Assembly: GCA_029782145.1 (NCBI GenBank)
Contig: JAKOVH010000032.1
Location: 124,001 to 188,000 of the forward strand
Length of the DNA stretch: 64,000 bases
Source: Actinomycetes bacterium
Lineage (GTDB): Bacteria; Actinomycetota; Acidimicrobiia; Acidimicrobiales; Acidimicrobilacustridaceae
Direction: 5' to 3'
The position numbers were made by a program, and so were the translations under genes. Below are positions 5,767 through 17,947 of this stretch, in pieces; position 1 is the stretch's first letter, and each line of letters opens with the position of its first letter. The notes under the pieces were generated by a model. The model ran no database searches. It was given only the letters and a program-made list of their open reading frames with translations, and had not been told where the DNA came from.

Positions 5767-6384
5767 TCACCGAGCAGTGGCCACCACGTCGATCGTGCGG
5801 GGGAAGTGGTCCATGGCCCTCACGGCGCCGGCCACGCGCACCGACGCCATCTCCAGCACGGCGCCCGGCACGGGGCCGGTGGCCCGCAGCTCGACGTGCA
5901 GCTCGCTGCCCCTCCGGACCACCTCGGCGTCGGCCAGGCGGGCGTCGAGACCGTGGGCCTCGAGCACGGTGGCGAAGGCGGACCGGGCCACGTCGGCATG
6001 GCGGCGCAGCGGTGCGGCGGCGGCCGCGGCCACGGCCTCGGCGAGGTCGCTGCCGTCGGGGGTGACGGCGGTGGCGAAGCCCCGCAGCGGGCTGCGAGCG
6101 ACGTTGCCGGTGACGACGAGCGGGATGTGGCGGCGCAGGGCGCACCGGGCGCCGTCCTCGCCGGCGTCGCGGTCGAGGCCGGACATGTCAGGCTCGCCGC
6201 GGACCACCACGGCGACGTCGACGTCACCGGCGTCGAGCGGGCAGTCGCCGCCGTCCAGCCCTCGGCACGGGAACGCGGCCTCGTCCTGGCCGTGGCAGCG
6301 GGCGATCGAGTGGCCCGCCTCGGCCAGCGTGAGCGCGGCGTCGCAGGATGCCCCGGCCTCGCCCTCCAGCACCAGCACCTTCAT
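5767..6384 (-). CDS. cysteine-rich protein of unknown function, DosR-box associated
   Basis: A 205-residue soluble protein that I do not recognise. The N-terminus (MKVLVLEGEAG) looks like the first strand and loop of a Rossmann or receiver-like fold. Cysteines 14, 30, 40, 48 and 81 all lie in the first 81 residues, with a FPCRGLDGGDCPLD segment suggesting metal or redox chemistry. The C-terminal part has alternating strands and one long helix. ATG at 6384 is preceded by GGGGAGCC. It is divergent from the copper oxidase gene, and a DosR-box-like palindrome lies near the middle of their 218-bp shared promoter region. That placement suggests expression under low oxygen or nitric oxide stress, but the function is unknown. 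Confidence 0.7.
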   Translation of the reverse strand: MKVLVLEGEAGASCDAALTLAEAGHSIARCHGQDEAAFPCRGLDGGDCPLDAGDVDVAVVVRGEPDMSGLDRDAGEDGARCALRRHIPLVVTGNVARSPLRGFATAVTPDGSDLAEAVAAAAAAPLRRHADVARSAFATVLEAHGLDARLADAEVVRRGSELHVELRATGPVPGAVLEMASVRVAGAVRAMDHFPRTIDVVATAR

Positions 6385-6484: not shown

Positions 6485-6499
6485 ACGGACCAAAGTCCC
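6485..6499. promoter_or_regulatory. DosR-box-like palindrome (copper oxidase / cysteine-rich protein promoters)
   Basis: On the minus strand this reads GGGACTTTGGTCCGT. It matches the relaxed pattern GGGAC-H-TT-N-G-N-CCCT at all fixed positions but one. It is almost equidistant from two divergent starts (101 bp from 6384, 104 bp from 6603). Functional assignment rests on the DosR gene in the same cluster. Confidence 0.65.
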
Positions 6500-6602: not shown

Positions 6603-8066
6603 ATGGCACCCAACCAAGACCGAAGCATGTTCACCGTGTTCGCGTCATTGACCGCCGTGGCGGCGTTCCTGCTGGCCGCGGTGGGCATCATCGTGGTCGT
6701 CAACAAGGACGACAACGCCAGCCTGAAGACCGCCTCGGGCCCGGTCACCGTCACCCTCACGGAGTTCAAGATCGCCCCCGGCACGATCAACATGCCCACG
6801 GGCGGGTCGCTCGACGTGGTGAACGCCGGCACGATGGCCCACAACCTGACCGTCACCGGCGGCCCGGCCACGCCGGACATCGCCGGCGGCAAGTCGGCGA
6901 CCCTCGACCTGTCGAGCCTCAAGGCCGGCACCTACGAGGTCACCTGCACCATCCCCGGCCACGCGGCTGCGGGCATGAAGGCCACCCTGGTGGTCGGTGG
7001 TTCCGGCTCCGGTGGCGGCGAGACCGCCTCGGGGTCCACCGGCGGCAGCAGCTCGGGCTCCACCTCGGGCGGGGTCTTCAACGGGATGTCGGACCAGGAC
7101 TTCCGGGCCATGGACGAGGCCCAGACGCAGGTCGTGCAGGACTACGTCGCCGCCTTCAAGGAGCACGGCACCGGTGTCCCGACCGCCGGACGGGGTGCCA
7201 CCGTGCTGGAGCCGACCGCCGGCGCCGACGGGTACAAGCAGATCGACCTGAAGGCCTCGATCATCGACTGGGAGGTCGAGCCGGGCAAGGTCGTCAAGGC
7301 GTGGGCCTACAACGACCAGGTGCCGGGCCCGACCATCAAGGTCCAGCCGGGCGACAAGCTGCGGATCTCGTTCACCAACGACACCCCGATGGGCCAGGAC
7401 ATCCACTGGCACGGCGTCTCCACCCCGTTCGGCCAGGACGGCGTGGCCCCCATCACCCAGCCGTTCGTCGCTCCCGGCGAGACCTTCACCTACCAGTTCA
7501 CCGCCCCCGACCACCACGAGATGGGCATGTACCACGCCCACCACGGCGGCGAGATCGCGGTCGTCAACGGTGAGTACGGCCAGTTCCAGGTCGGCGACGT
7601 GCCCCTGCCCAGCGGCAAGACCGTCAGCGGCATCAAGCTGCCCAACGACCTCAAGGTCGACAAGGCCATGCCGATGGTGCTCAACGACGCCGGCAACATC
7701 GGCCTGTCGCTGAACGGCAAGTCGTTCCCCGCCACCGACCCGATCGTGGCCAACGTGGGCGAGACCCTGCAGGTGACCTACCACAACGAGGGCCTGCAGT
7801 GTCACCCGATGCACCTCCACCGGGTCAAGCAGCTGGTGATCGAGAAGGACGACTGGCCCCTCGACCAGCCGTACTACGTCGACACCCTGACGGTGTGCCC
7901 CGGTGAGCGCTACACCGTGCTGATCCGGCCCACCGCCGACGAGGTCGGCATCTGGGCCTACCACTGCCACATCCTCACCCACGCGGAGACCGACAAGGGC
8001 CTGCGCTACATGGTGACCGTGCTGGTGGTGCCGCCGGTGCCCGAGCGGGGCCAGAGCGCCACCTGA
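6603..8066 (+). CDS. three-cupredoxin multicopper oxidase (N-terminal cupredoxin plus two-domain oxidase)
   Basis: A 487-residue protein with an N-terminal membrane anchor (about 10-32). Residues about 40-135 form a blue-copper cupredoxin with ligands H80, C115, H120 and M125 (HNLTV; TCTIPGHAAAGM). A Gly/Ser linker leads to a two-domain multicopper oxidase: H268-W-H270, H311-A-H313-H314, H401-P-M-H404-L-H406 and H454-C455-H456...H460. All trinuclear-site histidines and the second-domain type 1 copper are present, so it should be an active oxidase, or a nitrite-reductase relative. The extra cupredoxin may act as electron donor. ATG at 6603 has GAGGAG 5 nt upstream. A strong hairpin terminator follows. 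A DosR-like box lies in its promoter region. Confidence 0.85.
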   Translation: MAPNQDRSMFTVFASLTAVAAFLLAAVGIIVVVNKDDNASLKTASGPVTVTLTEFKIAPGTINMPTGGSLDVVNAGTMAHNLTVTGGPATPDIAGGKSATLDLSSLKAGTYEVTCTIPGHAAAGMKATLVVGGSGSGGGETASGSTGGSSSGSTSGGVFNGMSDQDFRAMDEAQTQVVQDYVAAFKEHGTGVPTAGRGATVLEPTAGADGYKQIDLKASIIDWEVEPGKVVKAWAYNDQVPGPTIKVQPGDKLRISFTNDTPMGQDIHWHGVSTPFGQDGVAPITQPFVAPGETFTYQFTAPDHHEMGMYHAHHGGEIAVVNGEYGQFQVGDVPLPSGKTVSGIKLPNDLKVDKAMPMVLNDAGNIGLSLNGKSFPATDPIVANVGETLQVTYHNEGLQCHPMHLHRVKQLVIEKDDWPLDQPYYVDTLTVCPGERYTVLIRPTADEVGIWAYHCHILTHAETDKGLRYMVTVLVVPPVPERGQSAT

Positions 8067-8171: not shown

Positions 8172-8618
8172 TCAGGCCTGGGTGTCGGGGGCGGCGCGCT
8201 CGCCCTCGGCGACGATCCGCCGGCCGGTGACGCGCTCGGGGTGCACCGTGACCCAGCTGTCCTTGCGGTGCTCCGACCAGGGGTGCAGGCCGAGCTGCTC
8301 GAACCGCTCGAGCTGCGCGGGCGCCACCGCGACCCGGGCCCAGCCGGTGACGATGACGCTCCAGGCGCCGTGGCTGCGAGGGTCGGCGTCGTCGATCTCG
8401 AACGCCACGGGGCCGCCCTGGAGGGCGGCGTCGAGCTTGGTGCCCTCGGCGGTGCGCAGGACGATGACGTCGCCGTCCATGGCGTAGTTGACGGGGAAGA
8501 TGACCGGGTGGCCCGCGTCGACCACGGCGATGCGACCGATGTCGGTCGAGCGCAGCAGCTCGAGGCACTCTTCGCGCTCGATGACCTCGATCCCCGTCCG
8601 GCCGTCGATCAGTCGCAT
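8172..8618 (-). CDS. pyridoxamine 5'-phosphate oxidase-fold protein (Rv0080-like)
   Basis: A 148-residue single-domain PPOX-fold protein. The N-terminus has the usual helix (REECLELLRSTDIGRIAVV), followed by PVNYAMDGDVIVLRT and GTKLDAALQGGPVAFEID, the split-barrel strands that bind FMN or F420 in this superfamily. Small actinobacterial members are flavin/deazaflavin binders of often unknown substrate; one (Rv0080) belongs to the M. tuberculosis DosR regulon. A GGTGAGGAGG ribosome-binding site precedes the ATG at 8618. It is divergent from a universal stress gene, with a DosR-like box between the two. Confidence 0.8.
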   Translation of the reverse strand: MRLIDGRTGIEVIEREECLELLRSTDIGRIAVVDAGHPVIFPVNYAMDGDVIVLRTAEGTKLDAALQGGPVAFEIDDADPRSHGAWSVIVTGWARVAVAPAQLERFEQLGLHPWSEHRKDSWVTVHPERVTGRRIVAEGERAAPDTQA

Positions 8619-8683: not shown

Positions 8684-8698
8684 AGGGGCCAAGGTCCG
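8684..8698. promoter_or_regulatory. DosR-box-like palindrome (PPOX / universal stress promoters)
   Basis: The minus strand reads CGGACCTTGGCCCCT, one mismatch to GGGAC-H-TT-N-G-N-CCCT. It lies 65 bp from the PPOX start and 28 bp before the universal stress protein start, so either or both could be controlled. Confidence 0.6.
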
Positions 8699-8726: not shown

Positions 8727-9191
8727 ATGAGCGAGGCACGCATCGTGGGCGACGTGGTCGTGGCCGTCGACTTCTCCGACCGCACCGACGACGTGCTGGC
8801 CGAAGGCCTGGCGCTGGCGGCGGCCTCGGGCGGGGTGCTGCACCTGCTGCACGTGGCCGCGGGCGAGCCGATCCTCGCCGGCTACGACAAGGAGCAGATC
8901 AACCCCTTCACCCGCGACGCCCGGGCCGGCGAGCTCACCGACGAGCACCGGCAGCTGCGCGAGCTGGCGGCCGGCCTGGCCGACCGCGGGGTCGAGGTAC
9001 GGCCCCTCGTCGTGGTGGGCCCGACCGCCCAACGCATCCTCGAGGCGGCCGAGCACCTCGGCGCGTCGCACGTCGTGATCGGCTCCCACGGCCACGGCGG
9101 CCTGCACCACCTGCTCGTCGGCAGTGTGGCCGAGGAGGTCGTGCGCCACGCCGCCGTGCCGGTCGTGCTGGTCCCGGTGCGCGGCCGCTGA
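8727..9191 (+). CDS. universal stress protein (single UspA domain)
   Basis: A 154-residue UspA-fold protein. It begins DVVVAVDFSDRTDDVL and ends with the ATP-binding signature G-x2-G-x9-G-S (GSHGHGGLHHLLVGSV), followed by HAAVPVVLVPV. The full motif predicts ATP binding. UspA proteins are the most abundant class in the mycobacterial DosR regulon and influence entry into dormancy. The ATG at 8727 is preceded by a weak ribosome-binding site; the DosR-like box ends 28 bp upstream. Confidence 0.87.
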   Translation: MSEARIVGDVVVAVDFSDRTDDVLAEGLALAAASGGVLHLLHVAAGEPILAGYDKEQINPFTRDARAGELTDEHRQLRELAAGLADRGVEVRPLVVVGPTAQRILEAAEHLGASHVVIGSHGHGGLHHLLVGSVAEEVVRHAAVPVVLVPVRGR

Positions 9192-9349: not shown

Positions 9350-10105
9350 ATGGACGTTCGAGAGGTCGAGGTCGGTGTCACCACGCGCGGCGAGGTGCCG
9401 GAGGCGGCCAAGGAGTACGCCACCGACAAGATCGCCCAGCTCACGCGGCTCACCGACAAGCCGATCCTGTTCGCGCAGGTGAAGCTGACCCTCGAGCCCA
9501 ACCCCGCGCACGAGCGGCCGGCGGTGGCGGAGGCCACCGTGGACCTCAACGGCCACCAGGTGCGGGCCCACGTCGCTGCCGCCCGCATGGAGGAGGCGGT
9601 CGACCTGCTCGAGGGCCGGCTCCGTCGCAACATGGCGCGCTGCGCCGAGCGCATCGACCGCGAGAGCCTCCGCTACGCCCCGGAGCGCCCGGCGCACCGG
9701 CCCGACTACGTGGAGCGCCCGGTCGACGAGCGGGAGGTGGTCCGCCACAAGACGTTCGCCCTCGATCCCATGCCGTGGGACGAGGCGGCGTTCGACCTCG
9801 ACATGCTGGGCCACGACTTCTACCTGTTCACCGAGCTGGCGACCGGCTCCGAGTGCGTGGTGTGCCACACCGACGACGGCGGCACGGAGGTGCTCCCCGG
9901 CACCGACGCCGCCGCGGCCGCCCTGGCCGCGGCGGGCGAGGTCGTGGTCGGACCGGTGGCGCCCGAGCTGCGCCTCGACGAGGCCGAGGAGCGCCTCGAC
10001 GTGGGCCACGAGCCGTTCGTGTTCTTCGTCGACGGCGACAGCCGCCGCGGCCAGGTCGTGTACCGACGCTTCGACGGTCACTACGGTCTCATCACGCCCG
10101 GCTGA
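9350..10105 (+). CDS. long ribosome hibernation factor, RafH-like
   Basis: A 251-residue protein. Residues about 1-105 are an S30AE (HPF/YfiA) domain that would sit in the decoding and mRNA channel of the 30S subunit (VGVTTRGEVPEAAKEYATDKI; HERPAVAEATVDLNG). Two C-terminal S30AE_C-like modules follow: VVRHKTFALDPMPWDEAAFDLDMLGHDFYLF at about 129-160, and FVFFVDGDSRRGQVVYRRFDGHYGLITP at the end. That double C-terminus is the layout of mycobacterial RafH, the hypoxia-induced factor of the DosR regulon, rather than ordinary long HPF. GGAAGGAG lies 5 nt before the ATG at 9350. It probably stabilises idle 70S ribosomes during oxygen limitation. Confidence 0.85.
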   Translation: MDVREVEVGVTTRGEVPEAAKEYATDKIAQLTRLTDKPILFAQVKLTLEPNPAHERPAVAEATVDLNGHQVRAHVAAARMEEAVDLLEGRLRRNMARCAERIDRESLRYAPERPAHRPDYVERPVDEREVVRHKTFALDPMPWDEAAFDLDMLGHDFYLFTELATGSECVVCHTDDGGTEVLPGTDAAAAALAAAGEVVVGPVAPELRLDEAEERLDVGHEPFVFFVDGDSRRGQVVYRRFDGHYGLITPG

Positions 10106-10153: not shown

Positions 10154-10591
10154 ATGAGCAAGATCGTGGTGGGCGTCGATGGCTCGGCCGGCTCGCGGGC
10201 GGCGCTGCGCTGGGCGTACCGGGAGGCCCAGCTGCGGGGCACCACCCTCGAGGCGGTGACCGTGTGGCAGTTCCCCGTCATGACCAGCCTGCCCGCCTTC
10301 GGGGCAATGCCCCCGCCCGAGGACCTCAGCGGCGAGGCGGAGGCGTCGCTGCTGCAGGTCCTGCAGGAGGAGGGCGTGGAGTCCACGGCGCAGGTGCCGG
10401 TGACCACCGTGGTCGCCGAGGGTGCCGCCGCCGCGGCGCTGCTCGAGGCGGCCGACGGCGCCGAGCTGTTGGTGGTCGGGTCGCGCGGCCATGGTGGCTT
10501 CACCGGGCTGCTGCTCGGTTCGGTCAGCCAGCAGTGCGCCACCCACGGTCGCTGCCCGGTGGTGGTGGTGCACCCCACTGACCAGGCCTGA
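10154..10591 (+). CDS. universal stress protein (ATP-binding type)
   Basis: A 145-residue UspA protein. It starts SKIVVGVDGSAGSRAALRWA, where GVDGS and ALRWA are typical of actinobacterial Usps, and carries the complete ATP-binding signature GSRGHGGFTGLLLGSVS before the last strand (RCPVVVVHP). The ATG at 10154 follows CAGGAG by 5 nt; a GTG two codons earlier lies too close to that site. The stop is 1 nt before the GTG start of the P-type ATPase, so the two are very probably co-translated. Confidence 0.88.
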   Translation: MSKIVVGVDGSAGSRAALRWAYREAQLRGTTLEAVTVWQFPVMTSLPAFGAMPPPEDLSGEAEASLLQVLQEEGVESTAQVPVTTVVAEGAAAAALLEAADGAELLVVGSRGHGGFTGLLLGSVSQQCATHGRCPVVVVHPTDQA

Positions 10592-10592
10592 G

Positions 10593-12959
10593 GTGGAGGT
10601 CGCGCATCGGGGCCTGACGAGCGCCGAGGTCGCGCAGCGCCGGGCCGACGGGCGCACCAACGACGTCCCGGACCCCACCAGCCGCACCGTCGGCCAGATC
10701 GTCCGGGCCAACGTCTTCACGCCGTTCAACGCGCTGCTGGGCGTGCTGCTCGTCGTGATCCTCGCCGTCGGCGAGTACCGCGACGCCCTGTTCGGCATCG
10801 TGCTGGTGCTCAACGCGCTGATCGGCATCGTGCAGGAGCTGCGGGCCAAGCGCTCCCTGGACCGCCTCGCCGTGCTCAACGCGCCGCACTCGAAGGTGCG
10901 GCGCGACGGCGAGGTCGTCGACGTGCCGTCGCGCGAGCTGGTCGCCGACGACGTCGTGGTGCTGGCCCTGGGCGACCAGATCGCCGTCGACGGCGAGGTG
11001 CTGGAGGCGTCCGGGCTGGAGATCGACGAGTCGCTGCTGACCGGCGAGGCCGACCCGGTCGACAAGGCGCCGGGCGGCACGGTGATGTCGGGCAGCTTCG
11101 TCGTGGCGGGCAGCGGCAGCATCCGGGCGACGGCGGTGGGCGCCGAGGCCTATGCCTTCCGGCTGTCGAGCGACGCCCGCCGGTTCTCGCTCGTGTCGAG
11201 CGAGCTGCGCACCGGCATCGACCGGGTCATCAAGCTGGTGAGCTGGCTCATGGTTCCCACCGCGGTGCTGCTCGTCACCGCCCAGCTCGACACCCACGAC
11301 GGCATCGTCGAGGCCGTGCAGGCGTCGGTGGCCGGGCTGGTCGCCATGGTGCCGGAGGGGCTCGTGCTGCTCACCAGCCTGGCCTTCGCCGTGGGCGCCA
11401 CCCGCCTGGCCACCCGGAAGGTCCTCACGCAGGAGCTGGCGGCCATCGAGGGCCTCGCCCGGGTCGACGTGATCTGCCTCGACAAGACCGGGACGCTCAC
11501 CGAGGGGGCCCTGACGCTCGGCACCGTGGAGCACCTCGCCGAGCAGGAGCCGGGCGCCCCTGACGCGGCGGCCGTGCTGGGGGCCCTCGGGGCGGCCGAC
11601 GAGCACCCCAACCCCAGCCTGGCCGCCATCGCCGCCGAGCTGCGGCCCCCCGCCGGCTGGTCGCGCACCGACGTGGTGCCCTTCTCGTCGGCGCGCAAGT
11701 GGAGCGCGGCGGCCTTCGACGGCCAGGGCGCCTGGTACCTCGGCGCGCCCGACATCCTCCTCGAGCGAGCCCCCGGCGGTGCTGGCCTGGAGGACGCCCG
11801 CGAGCGCCTCGCCGTCTACGCCAGCCGCGGCCGGCGAGTGCTGCTGCTGGCCCGCTCACCGGACGGGCTCGCCGGCGAGGCGCTCCCCGACGGGCTCGTC
11901 CCCACCGCCCTGGTGGTCCTCGACGAGCAGCTGCGGGAGGCGGCGCCGGCCACCATCGCCTACTTCGGGGAGCAGCAGGTGGCCGTCAAGGTGATCTCGG
12001 GCGACAGCCCGGTCACGGTGGGAGCGGTGGCGCGCCGGGTGGGGGTGCCCGGAGCCGACGATCCCGTCGACGCCCGCACCCTGCCGGACGACCCCGACGA
12101 CCTCGCCGAGGTGCTCGACACCCACTCGGTGTTCGGCCGGGTCACCCCCCACCAGAAGCGGGCGATGGTCCACGCCCTGCAGGCCCGGGGCCACACGGTG
12201 GCCATGACCGGCGACGGCGTCAACGACACCCTGGCGCTCAAGGACGCCGACATCGGCGTGGCGATGGGGTCGGGTTCGGCCGCCGCCCGAGCCGTGGCCC
12301 GCTTCGTGCTGCTCGCCAACGACTTCTCGGTGTTCCCGTCGGTGGTGGCCGAGGGCCGACGGGTGATCGCCAACGTCGAGCGGGTCGCCAACCTGTTCCT
12401 CACCAAGACCTTCTACGCCATGGCCCTCGCCCTGGCCACCGGGGTGGGCCGGCTCCCGTTCCCCTTCATCCCCCGCCACTTCACGCTCATCTCGTCGCTC
12501 ACCATCGGCATCCCCGGGTTCTTCCTCGCCCTGGCCCCCAACGCCCGGCGTGCCCGCCCGGGCTTCCTCGGCCGGGTCCTGCGCTTCGCCCTGCCGACCG
12601 GCCTGGTCGCCGCCGTCGCCACGTTGGTGGCCTACGTGCTCGCCCGCGCCCAGGACGACGTCAGCCTCGAGCAGGCCCGCACGGTGGCGGTGATCACGCT
12701 GTTCCTGGTGGCGCTGTGGGTGCTGGTGATCCTCGCCCGACCGCTCAACGCGTGGAGGGTCGCCCTCGTCGCCACGATGGGTGCGGCCTTCGTCGGGGCG
12801 CTGGCCATCCCGTGGGTGCGCGACTACTTCGAGCTGGTGCTGCCCTCGGCCGTCGTGGTGTCGGCCGCCGTGGGGGTGGCGGCGGTGGGCGCGGCGGTGC
12901 TCGAGCTGGGGTGGCGCCTCGCCGGCTGGGAGCGCGCCCAGGCCCTCGACGAGGGCTGA
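10593..12959 (+). CDS. P-type cation-transporting ATPase, CtpE-like
   Basis: A 788-residue P-type pump. Visible motifs in order: actuator loop TGEADP (TGES equivalent, about residue 150), membrane segment with VPEGLVLLTS, phosphorylation site DKTGTLT with D297, TGDGVNDTLALKDADIGVAMG (hinge, about residue 539), and a C-terminal membrane block. The VPEGLVLLTS...AIEGLARVD context resembles mycobacterial CtpE (calcium uptake, about 797 residues) more than the longer DosR-regulated CtpF. Substrate is probably a divalent cation such as calcium; this is inference. GTG at 10593 lies 1 nt after the stop of the stress protein. Confidence 0.85.
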   Translation: MEVAHRGLTSAEVAQRRADGRTNDVPDPTSRTVGQIVRANVFTPFNALLGVLLVVILAVGEYRDALFGIVLVLNALIGIVQELRAKRSLDRLAVLNAPHSKVRRDGEVVDVPSRELVADDVVVLALGDQIAVDGEVLEASGLEIDESLLTGEADPVDKAPGGTVMSGSFVVAGSGSIRATAVGAEAYAFRLSSDARRFSLVSSELRTGIDRVIKLVSWLMVPTAVLLVTAQLDTHDGIVEAVQASVAGLVAMVPEGLVLLTSLAFAVGATRLATRKVLTQELAAIEGLARVDVICLDKTGTLTEGALTLGTVEHLAEQEPGAPDAAAVLGALGAADEHPNPSLAAIAAELRPPAGWSRTDVVPFSSARKWSAAAFDGQGAWYLGAPDILLERAPGGAGLEDARERLAVYASRGRRVLLLARSPDGLAGEALPDGLVPTALVVLDEQLREAAPATIAYFGEQQVAVKVISGDSPVTVGAVARRVGVPGADDPVDARTLPDDPDDLAEVLDTHSVFGRVTPHQKRAMVHALQARGHTVAMTGDGVNDTLALKDADIGVAMGSGSAAARAVARFVLLANDFSVFPSVVAEGRRVIANVERVANLFLTKTFYAMALALATGVGRLPFPFIPRHFTLISSLTIGIPGFFLALAPNARRARPGFLGRVLRFALPTGLVAAVATLVAYVLARAQDDVSLEQARTVAVITLFLVALWVLVILARPLNAWRVALVATMGAAFVGALAIPWVRDYFELVLPSAVVVSAAVGVAAVGAAVLELGWRLAGWERAQALDEG

Positions 12960-14852
<1,893 letters not shown>

Positions 14853-14859
14853 CCGCAGC

Positions 14860-16341
14860 TCAGCCGGCGGCCTCGATTGCCGCCGCCAGCGCCCGGTCGA
14901 CGCCGTCGGAGGTGTCGACCGCTGTCGCCTCGGGCCACGGCGCGGCGTCGGCGGCCATGCGGCGGGCGACCTCGGCGTCGGCGTCGGAGTCGGTCGGCCC
15001 GGCGGCCCGGCGGCGGGCGATGCGCTCGGCCGCCACCTCCGGGGGGCAGGTGCACCGCAGCTCCACCAGCTCGGCGCCGCAGCGGCGGGCGACCTCTCGG
15101 GCGTCGTCGCGCCGGCCGCCGTCGGTCCACGACGCGTCGAGCACGACCGTGCCACCCCGCTCGAGGACGATGGCGGCCCGCGCCAGCAGCTCGGCGTAGG
15201 TCGCGTCGGACGCTGCTCGCGAGTAGAGGCCCTGCCCGTAGGCCTCCGCCGCCGGGGTGTCGGCCGCCAACCCGGCGAGCTCCTTGCGCAGCGGGTCCGA
15301 CGAGAGATGGGTGGCGTCCAGTCGATCGGCCAGCCCGGAGGCCACGGTGGTCTTGCCGGTGCCGGGCAGCCCGCCGACCAGCACCAGACGCACCCGGGCG
15401 AGGCGCAGGTGGTCGCGGCACTGGGCGAGCCGGGCGCGCGCCTCGGCCACCGCCGCGTCCCGCTCGGGCCCCGGACCGGTCTGGACCGAGCGCAGGGCGG
15501 CGACCTTCGAGCGCACCAGCGCCCGGTAGGCCACGAACACCTCGACCAGGGCGACGGGGGCGTGGTCGCCGCTGAGCTCGCCGTAGGTGTCGCGGAGCAG
15601 GGCGGAGAGGTCCGGGCGCCCGAGGCGTTCGAGGTCCATGGCGAGGAAGGACACGTCGTTCCAGACGTCGACGTGGCGGAGGCGGTCGTCGAACTCGATG
15701 CAGTCGAGGATCCGGGGGCCGTCGTCGAGGCAGAAGATGTCGTCGGCCAGCAGGTCGCCGTGGCCGTCGACCGCGTGGCCGCCGGCGAGCCGCTCGGCGA
15801 ACACCCTCGAGCGGCCCCCGAGCCACGCCGTGGCCAGCCGGCCCACCTCGGCGAGGACCTCCGGGTCGAGCACGGGGTCGGGGCCGGCGCCGAAGGGGGC
15901 CATCTCGGTCAGGTTCTCGACCCACGCGCTGGTGACCGCGGCGTGGGAGGCGTCGCGGTCGACCGCCGGGCCCCGCGCCGCGGCGGCGTGGAAGGCGGCG
16001 ACCTGGTGGGCGACGGCCCGCACGTGGTCGGCGGCGCCGGGATCGCCCTCGGCGACGAGGGTCGAGAGGCGCCGCTCGGGCGGCATGCGCCGCATCTCCA
16101 CCAGGTGCTCGACGGGCCGGCCGTCGGGGCCCACGACATCGAGCACGCCGAGGTACACGTCCGGGCTGAGGCGACGGTTGAGCTGCACCTCGCGGTGGCA
16201 GGCCTCGGCCCGCTGCTCGCGCGTCGAGAAGTCGAGGAAGGCGAACCGCACGGGCTTCTTGACCTTGTAGGCGCGCTCGCCGAGGAAGATCAGGTGCGAG
16301 ACGTGGGTCTCGACCACCCCGTCGGGGTGGTGCTGCGCCAT
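14860..16341 (-). CDS. phosphotransferase / P-loop kinase fusion, Rv2004c-like
   Basis: A 493-residue protein. The N-terminal two-thirds is an aminoglycoside/choline-kinase-like fold, with [22 protein letters not shown], the catalytic loop [13 protein letters not shown] at about residue 190 and IEFDDRLRH after it. The C-terminal third is a P-loop kinase with Walker A GLPGTGKT at about residue 332 and a LID-like arginine-rich helix near the end. This layout and length match M. tuberculosis Rv2004c (498 residues), a DosR regulon gene of unknown substrate. It lies 17 bp downstream of the PPOX gene in one operon headed by a perfect DosR-like box, and converges on the kinase gene with a 7-bp gap. 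Confidence 0.82.
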
Positions 16342-16358: not shown

Positions 16359-16838
16359 TCAGGTGGCGCCGGCCGGCACGGCCACCGGGCGGGCCGCACC
16401 GGCGCCGGCGGGGCCAGAACGCCGCCGGGCCGTGCGCCGGCCGCTCACCAGGTCGGTGGTGATCATCACCCACTGGTCGGTGTGGTCGGCCACCCAGGCG
16501 TTGAGGTCGAGGTCGGCCAGCGCGGCGATGTCGGCGGCATCGGTCAGCACCGCCGAGGAGCCCCGCACCAGCACGCTCCACGCCTCGCCCGTCTCGGGAT
16601 CGACGTGGTCGGCCTCGAACGCCACCACCGCGCCGGTGAGGGCGGCGTCGAGCTTGCTGCCCGCCGCGGTGCGGATGACCAGGCGGTCGCCGTCGACCGC
16701 GAAGTTGACGGGCAGGACCACCGGCAGGGCGCTCATCGACAGCCCGATGCGGCCCACGGCCACGGAGGCCAGGAGCCGGAAGCACTCGTCGCGCCCGAGC
16801 ACCTCGAAGCCGTTGCGGTCCATCTCCATGTCGAACAT
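16359..16838 (-). CDS. second pyridoxamine 5'-phosphate oxidase-fold protein
   Basis: A 159-residue PPOX-fold protein, paralogous to the one at 8172. Both share the helix (RDECFRLLASVAVGRIGLS), the PVNFAVDGDRLVIRT strand pair and GSKLDAALTGAVVAFEAD. It has an Ala/Arg-rich tail after about residue 130. ATG 16838 is used, but in-frame ATGs 3 and 5 codons later are possible. It is first gene of the operon with the Rv2004c-like kinase, and a perfect DosR-like box lies 28 bp upstream. Confidence 0.8.
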   Translation of the reverse strand: MFDMEMDRNGFEVLGRDECFRLLASVAVGRIGLSMSALPVVLPVNFAVDGDRLVIRTAAGSKLDAALTGAVVAFEADHVDPETGEAWSVLVRGSSAVLTDAADIAALADLDLNAWVADHTDQWVMITTDLVSGRRTARRRSGPAGAGAARPVAVPAGAT

Positions 16839-16865: not shown

Positions 16866-16880
16866 AGGGCCGAATGTCCC
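16866..16880. promoter_or_regulatory. DosR-box-like palindrome, full match
   Basis: The minus strand reads GGGACATTCGGCCCT and fits GGGAC-H-TT-N-G-N-CCCT at every fixed position. It is the best site in the window and lies 28 bp upstream of the PPOX-kinase operon start. Confidence 0.7.
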
Positions 16881-16957: not shown

Positions 16958-17947
16958 ATGCCGGCGCCCCTGCGACCGATGAAGGCGGTGAGCGCCACGA
17001 CGCCGCCGACCGGTCCGGGCACGTGGGCCTACGAGGTGAAGTGGGACGGCATGCGGGTGCTCACCGAGGTCGACGCGGGCCGGGTGACGGCCTGGTCGGC
17101 CAACGGCGCCGACGCCACCGCCCGCTTCCCCGAGCTGGAGGGGCTCGCCGTCGCGCTGGCCGGCCATCGGCGTGCCGTGCTCGACGGCGAGGTCATCGCG
17201 CTCGACCCGGGCACCGGTCGGCCCGACTTCGGTCGCCTCCAGCCTCGCATGCAGGCCGCGTCGCCGGCCGCGGTGGCCCGCACCGCGGCCGAGGCCCCGG
17301 TGACCTACGTGGTGTTCGACCTCCTCGAGCTCGACGGCCGCTCGCTGCTCGACGAGCCCTACGACACACGCCGCGCGCTGCTGCAGGCGACGGTGGCCGA
17401 CGGTCCGGGGTGGTTCGTGGCGCCCGCCCACGACGACGGCGAGGCGCTGCTCGAGGCGGCGGACGCCCAGGGGCTCGAGGGGGTGGTCGCCAAGCGGTGC
17501 GACAGCCGCTACGAGCCCGGCCGGAGGTCGCCCGCCTGGGTGAAGGTGAAGGTCCGCCGCCGCCAGGAGCTCGTGGTGGGCGGGTGGCTGCCCGGCGCCG
17601 GGGCGCGGGCGCCGACCTTCGGAGCGCTCCTGCTGGGCTACCACGACCCCCCGGCGAGCGACGCCGCCCCCGCCGGACCCCTCCGCTTCGCCGGCCGGGT
17701 CGGCACCGGGTTCCGCGACGCGCTCCTCCGCGACCTGCGCGCCCGGCTCGACCGCCTCGCCACCGAGCAGTGCCCGTTCGAGCCGCCACCGCCGCGGCCG
17801 GTCCTGCGCCTCGCCCACTGGGTGCGACCCGAGATCGTCGTCGAGGTGGAGCACGCCGAGTGGACCGCCGACGGGGTGCTGCGCCACCCGTCGTACCTGG
17901 GTGAGCGCACCGACAAGCCGGCCAGCGAGGTGGGGCGGGCGCCGTAG
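16958..17947 (+). CDS. ATP-dependent DNA ligase, LigD-ligase-domain-like
   Basis: A 329-residue stand-alone ligase. The nucleotidyltransferase motif I is YEVKWDGMR with adenylated K28; motif III lies in VFDLLELDG; motif IV is GLEGVVAKRCDSRYEPGRRS; motif V is WVKVKV. An OB-fold C-terminal domain follows (RFAGRVGTGF). It lacks nuclease and polymerase domains, so it resembles the ligase module of LigD. The ATG at 16958 follows the divergent DosR-box promoter. A second such ligase is encoded at 47034. Its role is probably DNA repair, perhaps end joining, but no Ku gene is in the window. Confidence 0.87.
   Translation: MPAPLRPMKAVSATTPPTGPGTWAYEVKWDGMRVLTEVDAGRVTAWSANGADATARFPELEGLAVALAGHRRAVLDGEVIALDPGTGRPDFGRLQPRMQAASPAAVARTAAEAPVTYVVFDLLELDGRSLLDEPYDTRRALLQATVADGPGWFVAPAHDDGEALLEAADAQGLEGVVAKRCDSRYEPGRRSPAWVKVKVRRRQELVVGGWLPGAGARAPTFGALLLGYHDPPASDAAPAGPLRFAGRVGTGFRDALLRDLRARLDRLATEQCPFEPPPPRPVLRLAHWVRPEIVVEVEHAEWTADGVLRHPSYLGERTDKPASEVGRAP

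What the first reader, a model, noticed from the sequence alone, without database searches (positions are those of the whole stretch)
16866..16880. Full-match DosR box upstream of the PPOX-kinase operon, three near matches in the same island
Sites at 6485, 8684, 9229 and 16866 have 0-1 mismatches at the twelve fixed positions of GGGAC-H-TT-N-G-N-CCCT (one further position is H). All lie between genes of the island and none was noticed elsewhere at this quality. By rough base-frequency reasoning, less than one such site would be expected in the window.
Basis: partly seen in the sequence, partly recalled or inferred. Interest (0 to 1): 0.7.

Follow-up and report, generated by a model that had tools for sequence, protein, structure and literature searches.

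The report
DosR-type hypoxia boxes in Acidimicrobiia
The four short DNA sites are almost certainly landing sites for a DosR-type switch protein encoded in the same gene island, which shows that a relative of the oxygen-starvation (dormancy) switch of the tuberculosis bacterium, with a simplified sensor, exists in a distant, little-studied branch of actinobacteria.

Summary
The four sites (6485, 8684, 9229, 16866) are the only 0-1 mismatch matches in the window (0.1 expected), and all lie between genes. They flank textbook DosR-regulon genes: two PPOX flavoproteins, two universal stress proteins, a long hibernation factor, a CtpF-like P-type ATPase, an Rv2004c-like kinase and a two-domain laccase. 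Across related Acidimicrobiia the boxes recur at orthologous promoters, the PPOX box at a fixed spacing. Genome-wide, 23 of 25 sites are intergenic. Raw counts alone prove little: one composition-matched control pattern is more frequent. The system is a new variant of a known kind. DosS has a single haem GAF fused directly to the kinase (mycobacterial GAF-B absent) in the Acidimicrobiia examined, and dosRS usually carries no box of its own. Most likely low O2 (or NO/CO) makes DosS phosphorylate DosR, which binds the boxes and activates these genes. DNA binding and direction of control are inferred, not shown.

The parts
16866..16880 (-). DosR box, full match GGGACATTCGGCCCT, upstream of PPOX2-kinase operon; 35 bp (centre) from ATG 16838, 44 bp from conserved ATG 16829; also 85 bp upstream of the divergent DNA ligase gene
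6485..6499 (-). DosR box, 1 mismatch (GGGACTTTGGTCCGT), between divergent unknown-protein gene (minus) and two-domain laccase gene (plus)
   Evidence: box with <=2 mismatches at the orthologous laccase promoter in all 14 examined genomes
8684..8698 (-). DosR box, 1 mismatch (CGGACCTTGGCCCCT), between divergent PPOX1 (minus) and USP1 (plus)
   Evidence: conserved in L138 and L141
9229..9243 (+). DosR box, 1 mismatch (GGGACCTTCCGCCCT), 114 bp upstream of the hibernation factor gene
   Evidence: same 15 bases, mismatch included, in L138, L140 and L171
8713..8718 (+). -10-like TAGTGT just upstream of USP1 ATG (TAGNNT in all four aligned genomes); USP1 has no Shine-Dalgarno, so a leaderless promoter is inferred
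12993..13646 (-). DosR orthologue (NarL/LuxR response regulator), GTG start
13719..14852 (+). DosS-type histidine kinase with one haem GAF (His113, Tyr135) fused directly to HisKA_3 (His190) and HATPase
5767..6384 (-). Conserved unknown protein (205 aa, invariant Cys residues), divergent from the laccase across box 6485
6603..8066 (+). N-terminal cupredoxin fused to a two-domain laccase-type multicopper oxidase
8172..8618 (-). PPOX1, PNPOx-like flavoprotein
8727..9191 (+). USP1, universal stress protein
9350..10105 (+). Long ribosome hibernation promoting factor (S30AE plus S30AE_C)
10154..10591 (+). USP2, universal stress protein by sequence (Usp-like motifs; not itself submitted to a family search)
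10593..12959 (+). CtpF-like P-type cation ATPase, no box of its own; probably read through from the HPF promoter
14860..16341 (-). Kinase: AAA_33 P-loop kinase C-terminal part with an N-terminal region like Rv2004c
16359..16829 (-). PPOX2, PNPOx-like flavoprotein (conserved start 16829; upstream ATG at 16838)
16958..17947 (+). ATP-dependent DNA ligase, divergent from PPOX2; DosR control uncertain

Best explanation
The four sites are operators of the DosR-type response regulator encoded at 12993-13646. DosS (13719-14852) carries a b-type haem in its single GAF domain. When O2 leaves, or NO/CO binds, the kinase autophosphorylates on His190 and passes the phosphate to DosR Asp55. Phosphorylated DosR dimers bind the boxes, which sit next to or over the -35 region, and switch on PPOX2-kinase, laccase/unknown protein, PPOX1/USP1 and HPF-USP2-ATPase: a hypoxia/redox standby regulon. 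Shown here: sites, orthology, conserved catalytic and haem residues, conserved promoter positions. Inferred: haem binding, phosphotransfer, DNA binding, direction (activation) and signal.
For: DosR is the only DosR-clade regulator in the genome (next paralogue 42% identity) and falls in a supported clade (98/93) with M. tuberculosis DosR. The recognition helix [11 protein letters not shown] is identical to that of 3c3w. DosS GAF matches solved DevS/DosT haem domains (E 1e-49 to 1e-47) and keeps the His149 and Tyr171 equivalents (residue roles from PMC4082495). Boxes are conserved at orthologous promoters: laccase promoter 14 of 14 examined, PPOX2 box 33-36 bp from the anchor in 10 genomes, HPF box letter-identical in four genomes, where chance predicts about 0.015 match per 250 bp. 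23 of 25 genome sites are intergenic (p about 1e-23). Motif to reversed-control ratio is 2.2 in 31 DosR-positive genomes and 1.2 in 30 negatives. Predicted Streptomyces OsdR targets include the same core GGGACCTTCGGCCC (PMC5069765).
Against: No binding or expression data. Composition-matched control patterns give 3 and 79 hits in the genome, so 25 is not extreme as a raw count. The DosR-presence comparison weakens when only genomes of 3 Mb or more are compared (p = 0.10), and G044 has an excess without a DosR orthologue. Only some of the genome-wide sites outside the island recur in the congener G001. Most dosR and dosS promoters have no box.
Confidence: 0.88

Rival explanations
1. The boxes are bound by another NarL/LuxR-family regulator with overlapping specificity, and the dosRS genes next door are coincidental or only partly responsible. 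The perfect palindromes GGGACCTTGGTCCC near lipid and amidohydrolase genes elsewhere could belong to such a regulator.
For: Six paralogous response regulators exist; several off-island sites are a palindromic subtype next to different gene classes; G044 has an excess of sites without a DosR orthologue.
Against: None of the paralogues has the DosR recognition helix. The box set tracks the dosRS island in related genomes, and the target gene families are those of known DosR regulons.
Confidence: 0.07
2. Chance: the sites reflect GC-rich composition and a small amount of intergenic DNA.
For: One composition-matched control pattern is commoner (79 hits).
Against: 0.004 expected in island intergenic DNA against 4 found; the three window hits of that control all fall inside predicted genes (positions against the gene calls); boxes are conserved at orthologous promoters while the flanks diverge.
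Confidence: 0.01
3. DosR binds here but mainly represses, or the boxes serve to integrate nitrosative or copper/redox signals rather than hypoxia.
For: A laccase (an O2-using enzyme) is an odd gene to induce without O2. DosS lacks the Glu87 and His89 equivalents and the whole GAF-B domain, so its ligand preference may differ.
Against: Box placement 36-44 bp upstream of apparently leaderless starts fits a class II activator; mycobacterial DosR and Streptomyces OsdR mostly activate such genes (PMC5069765, PMC10034137).
Confidence: 0.15

Closest known systems
DosR/DevR with DosS/DevS and DosT of Mycobacterium tuberculosis
   Same: Orthologous regulator with identical recognition helix; haem-GAF sensor with conserved proximal His and distal Tyr; regulon families shared (USPs, PPOX-type flavoproteins, Rv2004c-like kinase, CtpF-like ATPase, HPF)
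   Different: DosS has one GAF only (377 aa; the M. tuberculosis protein has 579 residues and two GAFs); divergent dosR/dosS rather than an operon; mostly no box at dosR; box prefers GGGACCTT over mycobacterial GGGACTTT; laccase and a new Cys-rich protein in the regulon
OsdR/OsdK of Streptomyces coelicolor (PMC5069765)
   Same: USP-rich island around the regulator; PPOX gene SCO0214 with a site at -50; targets with core GGGACCTTCGGCCC
   Different: OsdR predicted to autoregulate (site at -81 of osdR) and to control nitrate reductase; the consensus derived upstream of osdR is GGGCCGATCGGCCC
PolS/PolR of Microlunatus phosphovorus (PMC6754071)
   Same: DevS/DevR-like two-component system in a non-mycobacterial actinobacterium
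   Different: Binds a different direct repeat (GTTCACnnnnnGTTCaC); polyphosphate metabolism targets

Membership tests
DosR (DevR) response regulator | NarL-type receiver plus LuxR HTH, clade with M. tuberculosis DosR | tested here: met
DosR (DevR) response regulator | Phospho-acceptor Asp54 and recognition helix [10 protein letters not shown] | tested here: met
   alignment; Asp54 role from PMC4082495
DosR (DevR) response regulator | Binds the box in vitro after phosphorylation | not testable with these tools
   needs protein
DosS/DosT sensor | Haem GAF with proximal His149 and distal Tyr171 equivalents | tested here: met
DosS/DosT sensor | HisKA_3 plus HATPase kinase core | tested here: met
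DosS/DosT sensor | Two tandem GAF domains (GAF-A and GAF-B) | tested here: not met
   GAF ends about 11 residues before the H-box here and in the Acidimicrobiia examined; about 130-190 residues in mycobacteria, Streptomyces, Saccharopolyspora and others. So it is a DosS-like single-GAF sensor, not a full-architecture DosS
DosR regulon | Boxes upstream of USP, PPOX/nitroreductase-type, HPF and kinase genes | tested here: met
DosR regulon | Autoregulation of dosR | tested here: not met
   no match with fewer than 5 mismatches in the window dosR-dosS gap; in the 28 upstream regions tested only L144, L031 and L032 have one with <=2 mismatches
DosR regulon | Induction by hypoxia/NO | not testable with these tools
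   no culture or transcriptome

The most novel reading that the evidence does not exclude
Acidimicrobiia carry a class-wide minimal DosRS in which a single haem-GAF domain, joined directly to the kinase and without GAF-B, controls a hypoxia regulon that is not self-amplifying and that includes a cupredoxin-laccase and a new cysteine-rich protein family. This may be the ancestral form from which the two-GAF mycobacterial sensor arose.
Probability: 0.5. Interest if true: 0.62.

Novelty: new variant of a known kind. Interest (0 to 1): 0.47.

Why it matters
It extends the dormancy switch of M. tuberculosis to a deep, mostly uncultured actinobacterial class and offers a natural single-GAF DosS. The role of GAF-B in mycobacterial DosS was described as unclear in a 2013 review (PMC4082495). 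A kinase that works without GAF-B would let the coupling from haem to kinase be tested directly. It also points to an unknown Cys-rich protein family whose promoter is tied to DosR boxes across the family.

Tried and rejected
Motif counting as proof: rejected as sufficient, because composition-matched controls scatter from 3 to 79 hits. The multicopper oxidase as nitrite reductase NirK (my first label): rejected; the best solved relatives are two-domain laccases and the NirK equivalog score is far below cut-off. Autoregulatory box at dosR/dosS: sought, not found in the window. Sigma-70 promoter scan: nothing. Fold search for the unknown protein: a receiver-like alpha/beta half at best, low scores, not decided. 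Gerasimova et al. 2011 (PMC3133309) not held. Literature: no held paper contains both DosR and Acidimicrobi-; the 20 hits with 'devr' were not read and look unrelated by title; subscription papers are mostly missing.

Full report
Observation. All four sites exist as described. With at most one mismatch they are the only ones in the window; Markov resamples give 0.1 per window and the reversed pattern none. All lie between genes. The whole genome (4.24 Mb, 34 contigs; window = contig 27, 124001-188000) holds 25 such sites against 3 for the reversed pattern, and 23 of 25 are outside predicted genes where about 8% of DNA is non-coding.

Caution on counts. Two further composition-matched palindromic patterns gave 79 and 3 hits. 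The first reads as favoured codons (GAG GCC TTC GNC CTC), and its three window hits are all inside predicted genes. The raw count is therefore weak evidence; position and conservation carry the case.

Anatomy. The island (about 5.8-17 kb) encodes, in order: an unknown protein (minus), cupredoxin-laccase (plus), PPOX1 (minus), USP1 (plus), long HPF (plus), USP2 (plus), a CtpF-like ATPase (plus), DosR (minus), DosS (plus), an AAA_33 kinase (minus), PPOX2 (minus) and an ATP-dependent DNA ligase (plus). The likeness to Rv2004c and CtpF is from general knowledge of the DosR regulon, plus the Rv2004c orthologue named in the M. abscessus regulon (PMC10034137).

The regulator. DosR aligns along its length with solved DevR 3c3w (E 1e-80) with an identical recognition helix; the phospho-Asp is kept. 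A maximum-likelihood tree puts it in a clade of 46 DosR proteins (98/93) with M. tuberculosis, Streptomyces and Saccharopolyspora sequences. The six other related regulators of the genome fall outside and lack the helix. Close relatives are Acidimicrobiales MAGs. That this helix contacts the box in M. tuberculosis is established knowledge (1zlk/1zlj), not tested here.

The sensor. DosS matches solved haem GAF domains of DosT/DevS. His149 and Tyr171, shown in PMC4082495 to hold and read the haem ligand, correspond to His113 and Tyr135; Glu87 is Gly and His89 is Leu. The GAF domain runs directly into the H-box. Of the kinases next to DosR, the Acidimicrobiia ones with a haem motif have this single-GAF layout (gap about 11-14 residues), while mycobacterial, Streptomyces, Saccharopolyspora, Myceligenerans and Herbidospora ones have about 130-190 residues between. 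Colinear single-GAF matches occur in 53 of 148 sampled genomes of the class (this search favours colinear matches, so it shows spread, not exclusivity).

Conserved boxes. In relatives the laccase promoter has a box with at most two mismatches in all 14 examined cases. The PPOX2 box sits 33-36 bp from the alignment anchor in ten genomes, including the window, with diverged flanks. The HPF box is letter-identical, including its mismatch, in L138, L140 and L171. The PPOX1/USP1 box recurs in L138 and L141. Chance would give about 0.015 such match per 250 bp. The dosR and dosS promoters lack boxes, with three exceptions at dosR.

Co-occurrence. Of 61 relatives, 31 have a DosR orthologue (E <= 1e-60) and show 4.2 motifs per Mb against 1.9 control; 30 without show 1.9 against 1.6 (Mann-Whitney p = 0.0005). 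Genome size, and perhaps GC, confound this; among genomes of 3 Mb or more p = 0.10.

Promoter geometry. Two classes appear. USP1 and PPOX2 have no Shine-Dalgarno; the box centre is 36 and 44 bp before the ATG, and USP1 has a TAGNNT -10-like element conserved in four genomes. These look leaderless. Laccase, unknown protein, PPOX1 and HPF have Shine-Dalgarno sequences and boxes 73-114 bp upstream, consistent with leadered transcripts. Both would place the box near -35 to -45, where a class II activator sits. This is inference.

Comparison. The motif and gene set match DosR of mycobacteria and OsdR of Streptomyces, whose predicted targets include GGGACCTTCGGCCC cores and a PPOX gene with a site at -50 (PMC5069765). 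Differences are the single-GAF sensor, divergent dosR/dosS, absence of an autoregulatory box, and new targets. Hence: works like DosRS; the regulator is a DosR by the sequence tests available; the sensor is a DosS-like variant that fails the two-GAF criterion.

Verdict. Binding, signal and direction remain untested.

Noticed in passing
window 5767-6384 (minus) and orthologues in L022, L023, L027, L139, L142, L143, L146-L149, L151, L154: Unknown protein of about 205 aa with invariant Cys (RCH, FPC, CPL, RCALRR) and no match in Pfam or NCBIfam; predicted receiver-like alpha/beta N-terminal half; its promoter usually carries a DosR box.
   Followed up: partly
window 6603-8066: Cupredoxin fused to a two-domain laccase as an apparent DosR target, odd for a low-oxygen regulon because laccases use O2.
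   Followed up: partly
L006, L011, L016, L019, L001: Off-island sites of the perfect palindrome type GGGACCWWGGTCCC near amidohydrolase, acyl-CoA ligase and electron-transfer flavoprotein genes; may belong to a different regulator.
   Followed up: partly
L009 (1501), L010 (1501), L002 (1501), L004 and L157: Boxes upstream of a wax ester synthase-like gene, a phosphoribosyltransferase-like gene, a PPK2-like gene and a high-affinity iron permease-like gene (names from sequence inspection only); the last is conserved in the congener with 0 mismatches.
   Followed up: partly
L163, L166, L167 (congener G001): Several boxes in front of FAD monooxygenase and cytochrome P450-like genes, one of them shared with L014 of the window genome.
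   Followed up: no
G044 (relatives search): 24 motif hits against 10 control hits although no DosR orthologue was found; another regulator or a missed gene.
   Followed up: no
L137 (G001 contig 16): In the congener several extra genes lie between DosS and the kinase-PPOX2 operon, yet the PPOX2 box is kept.
   Followed up: no
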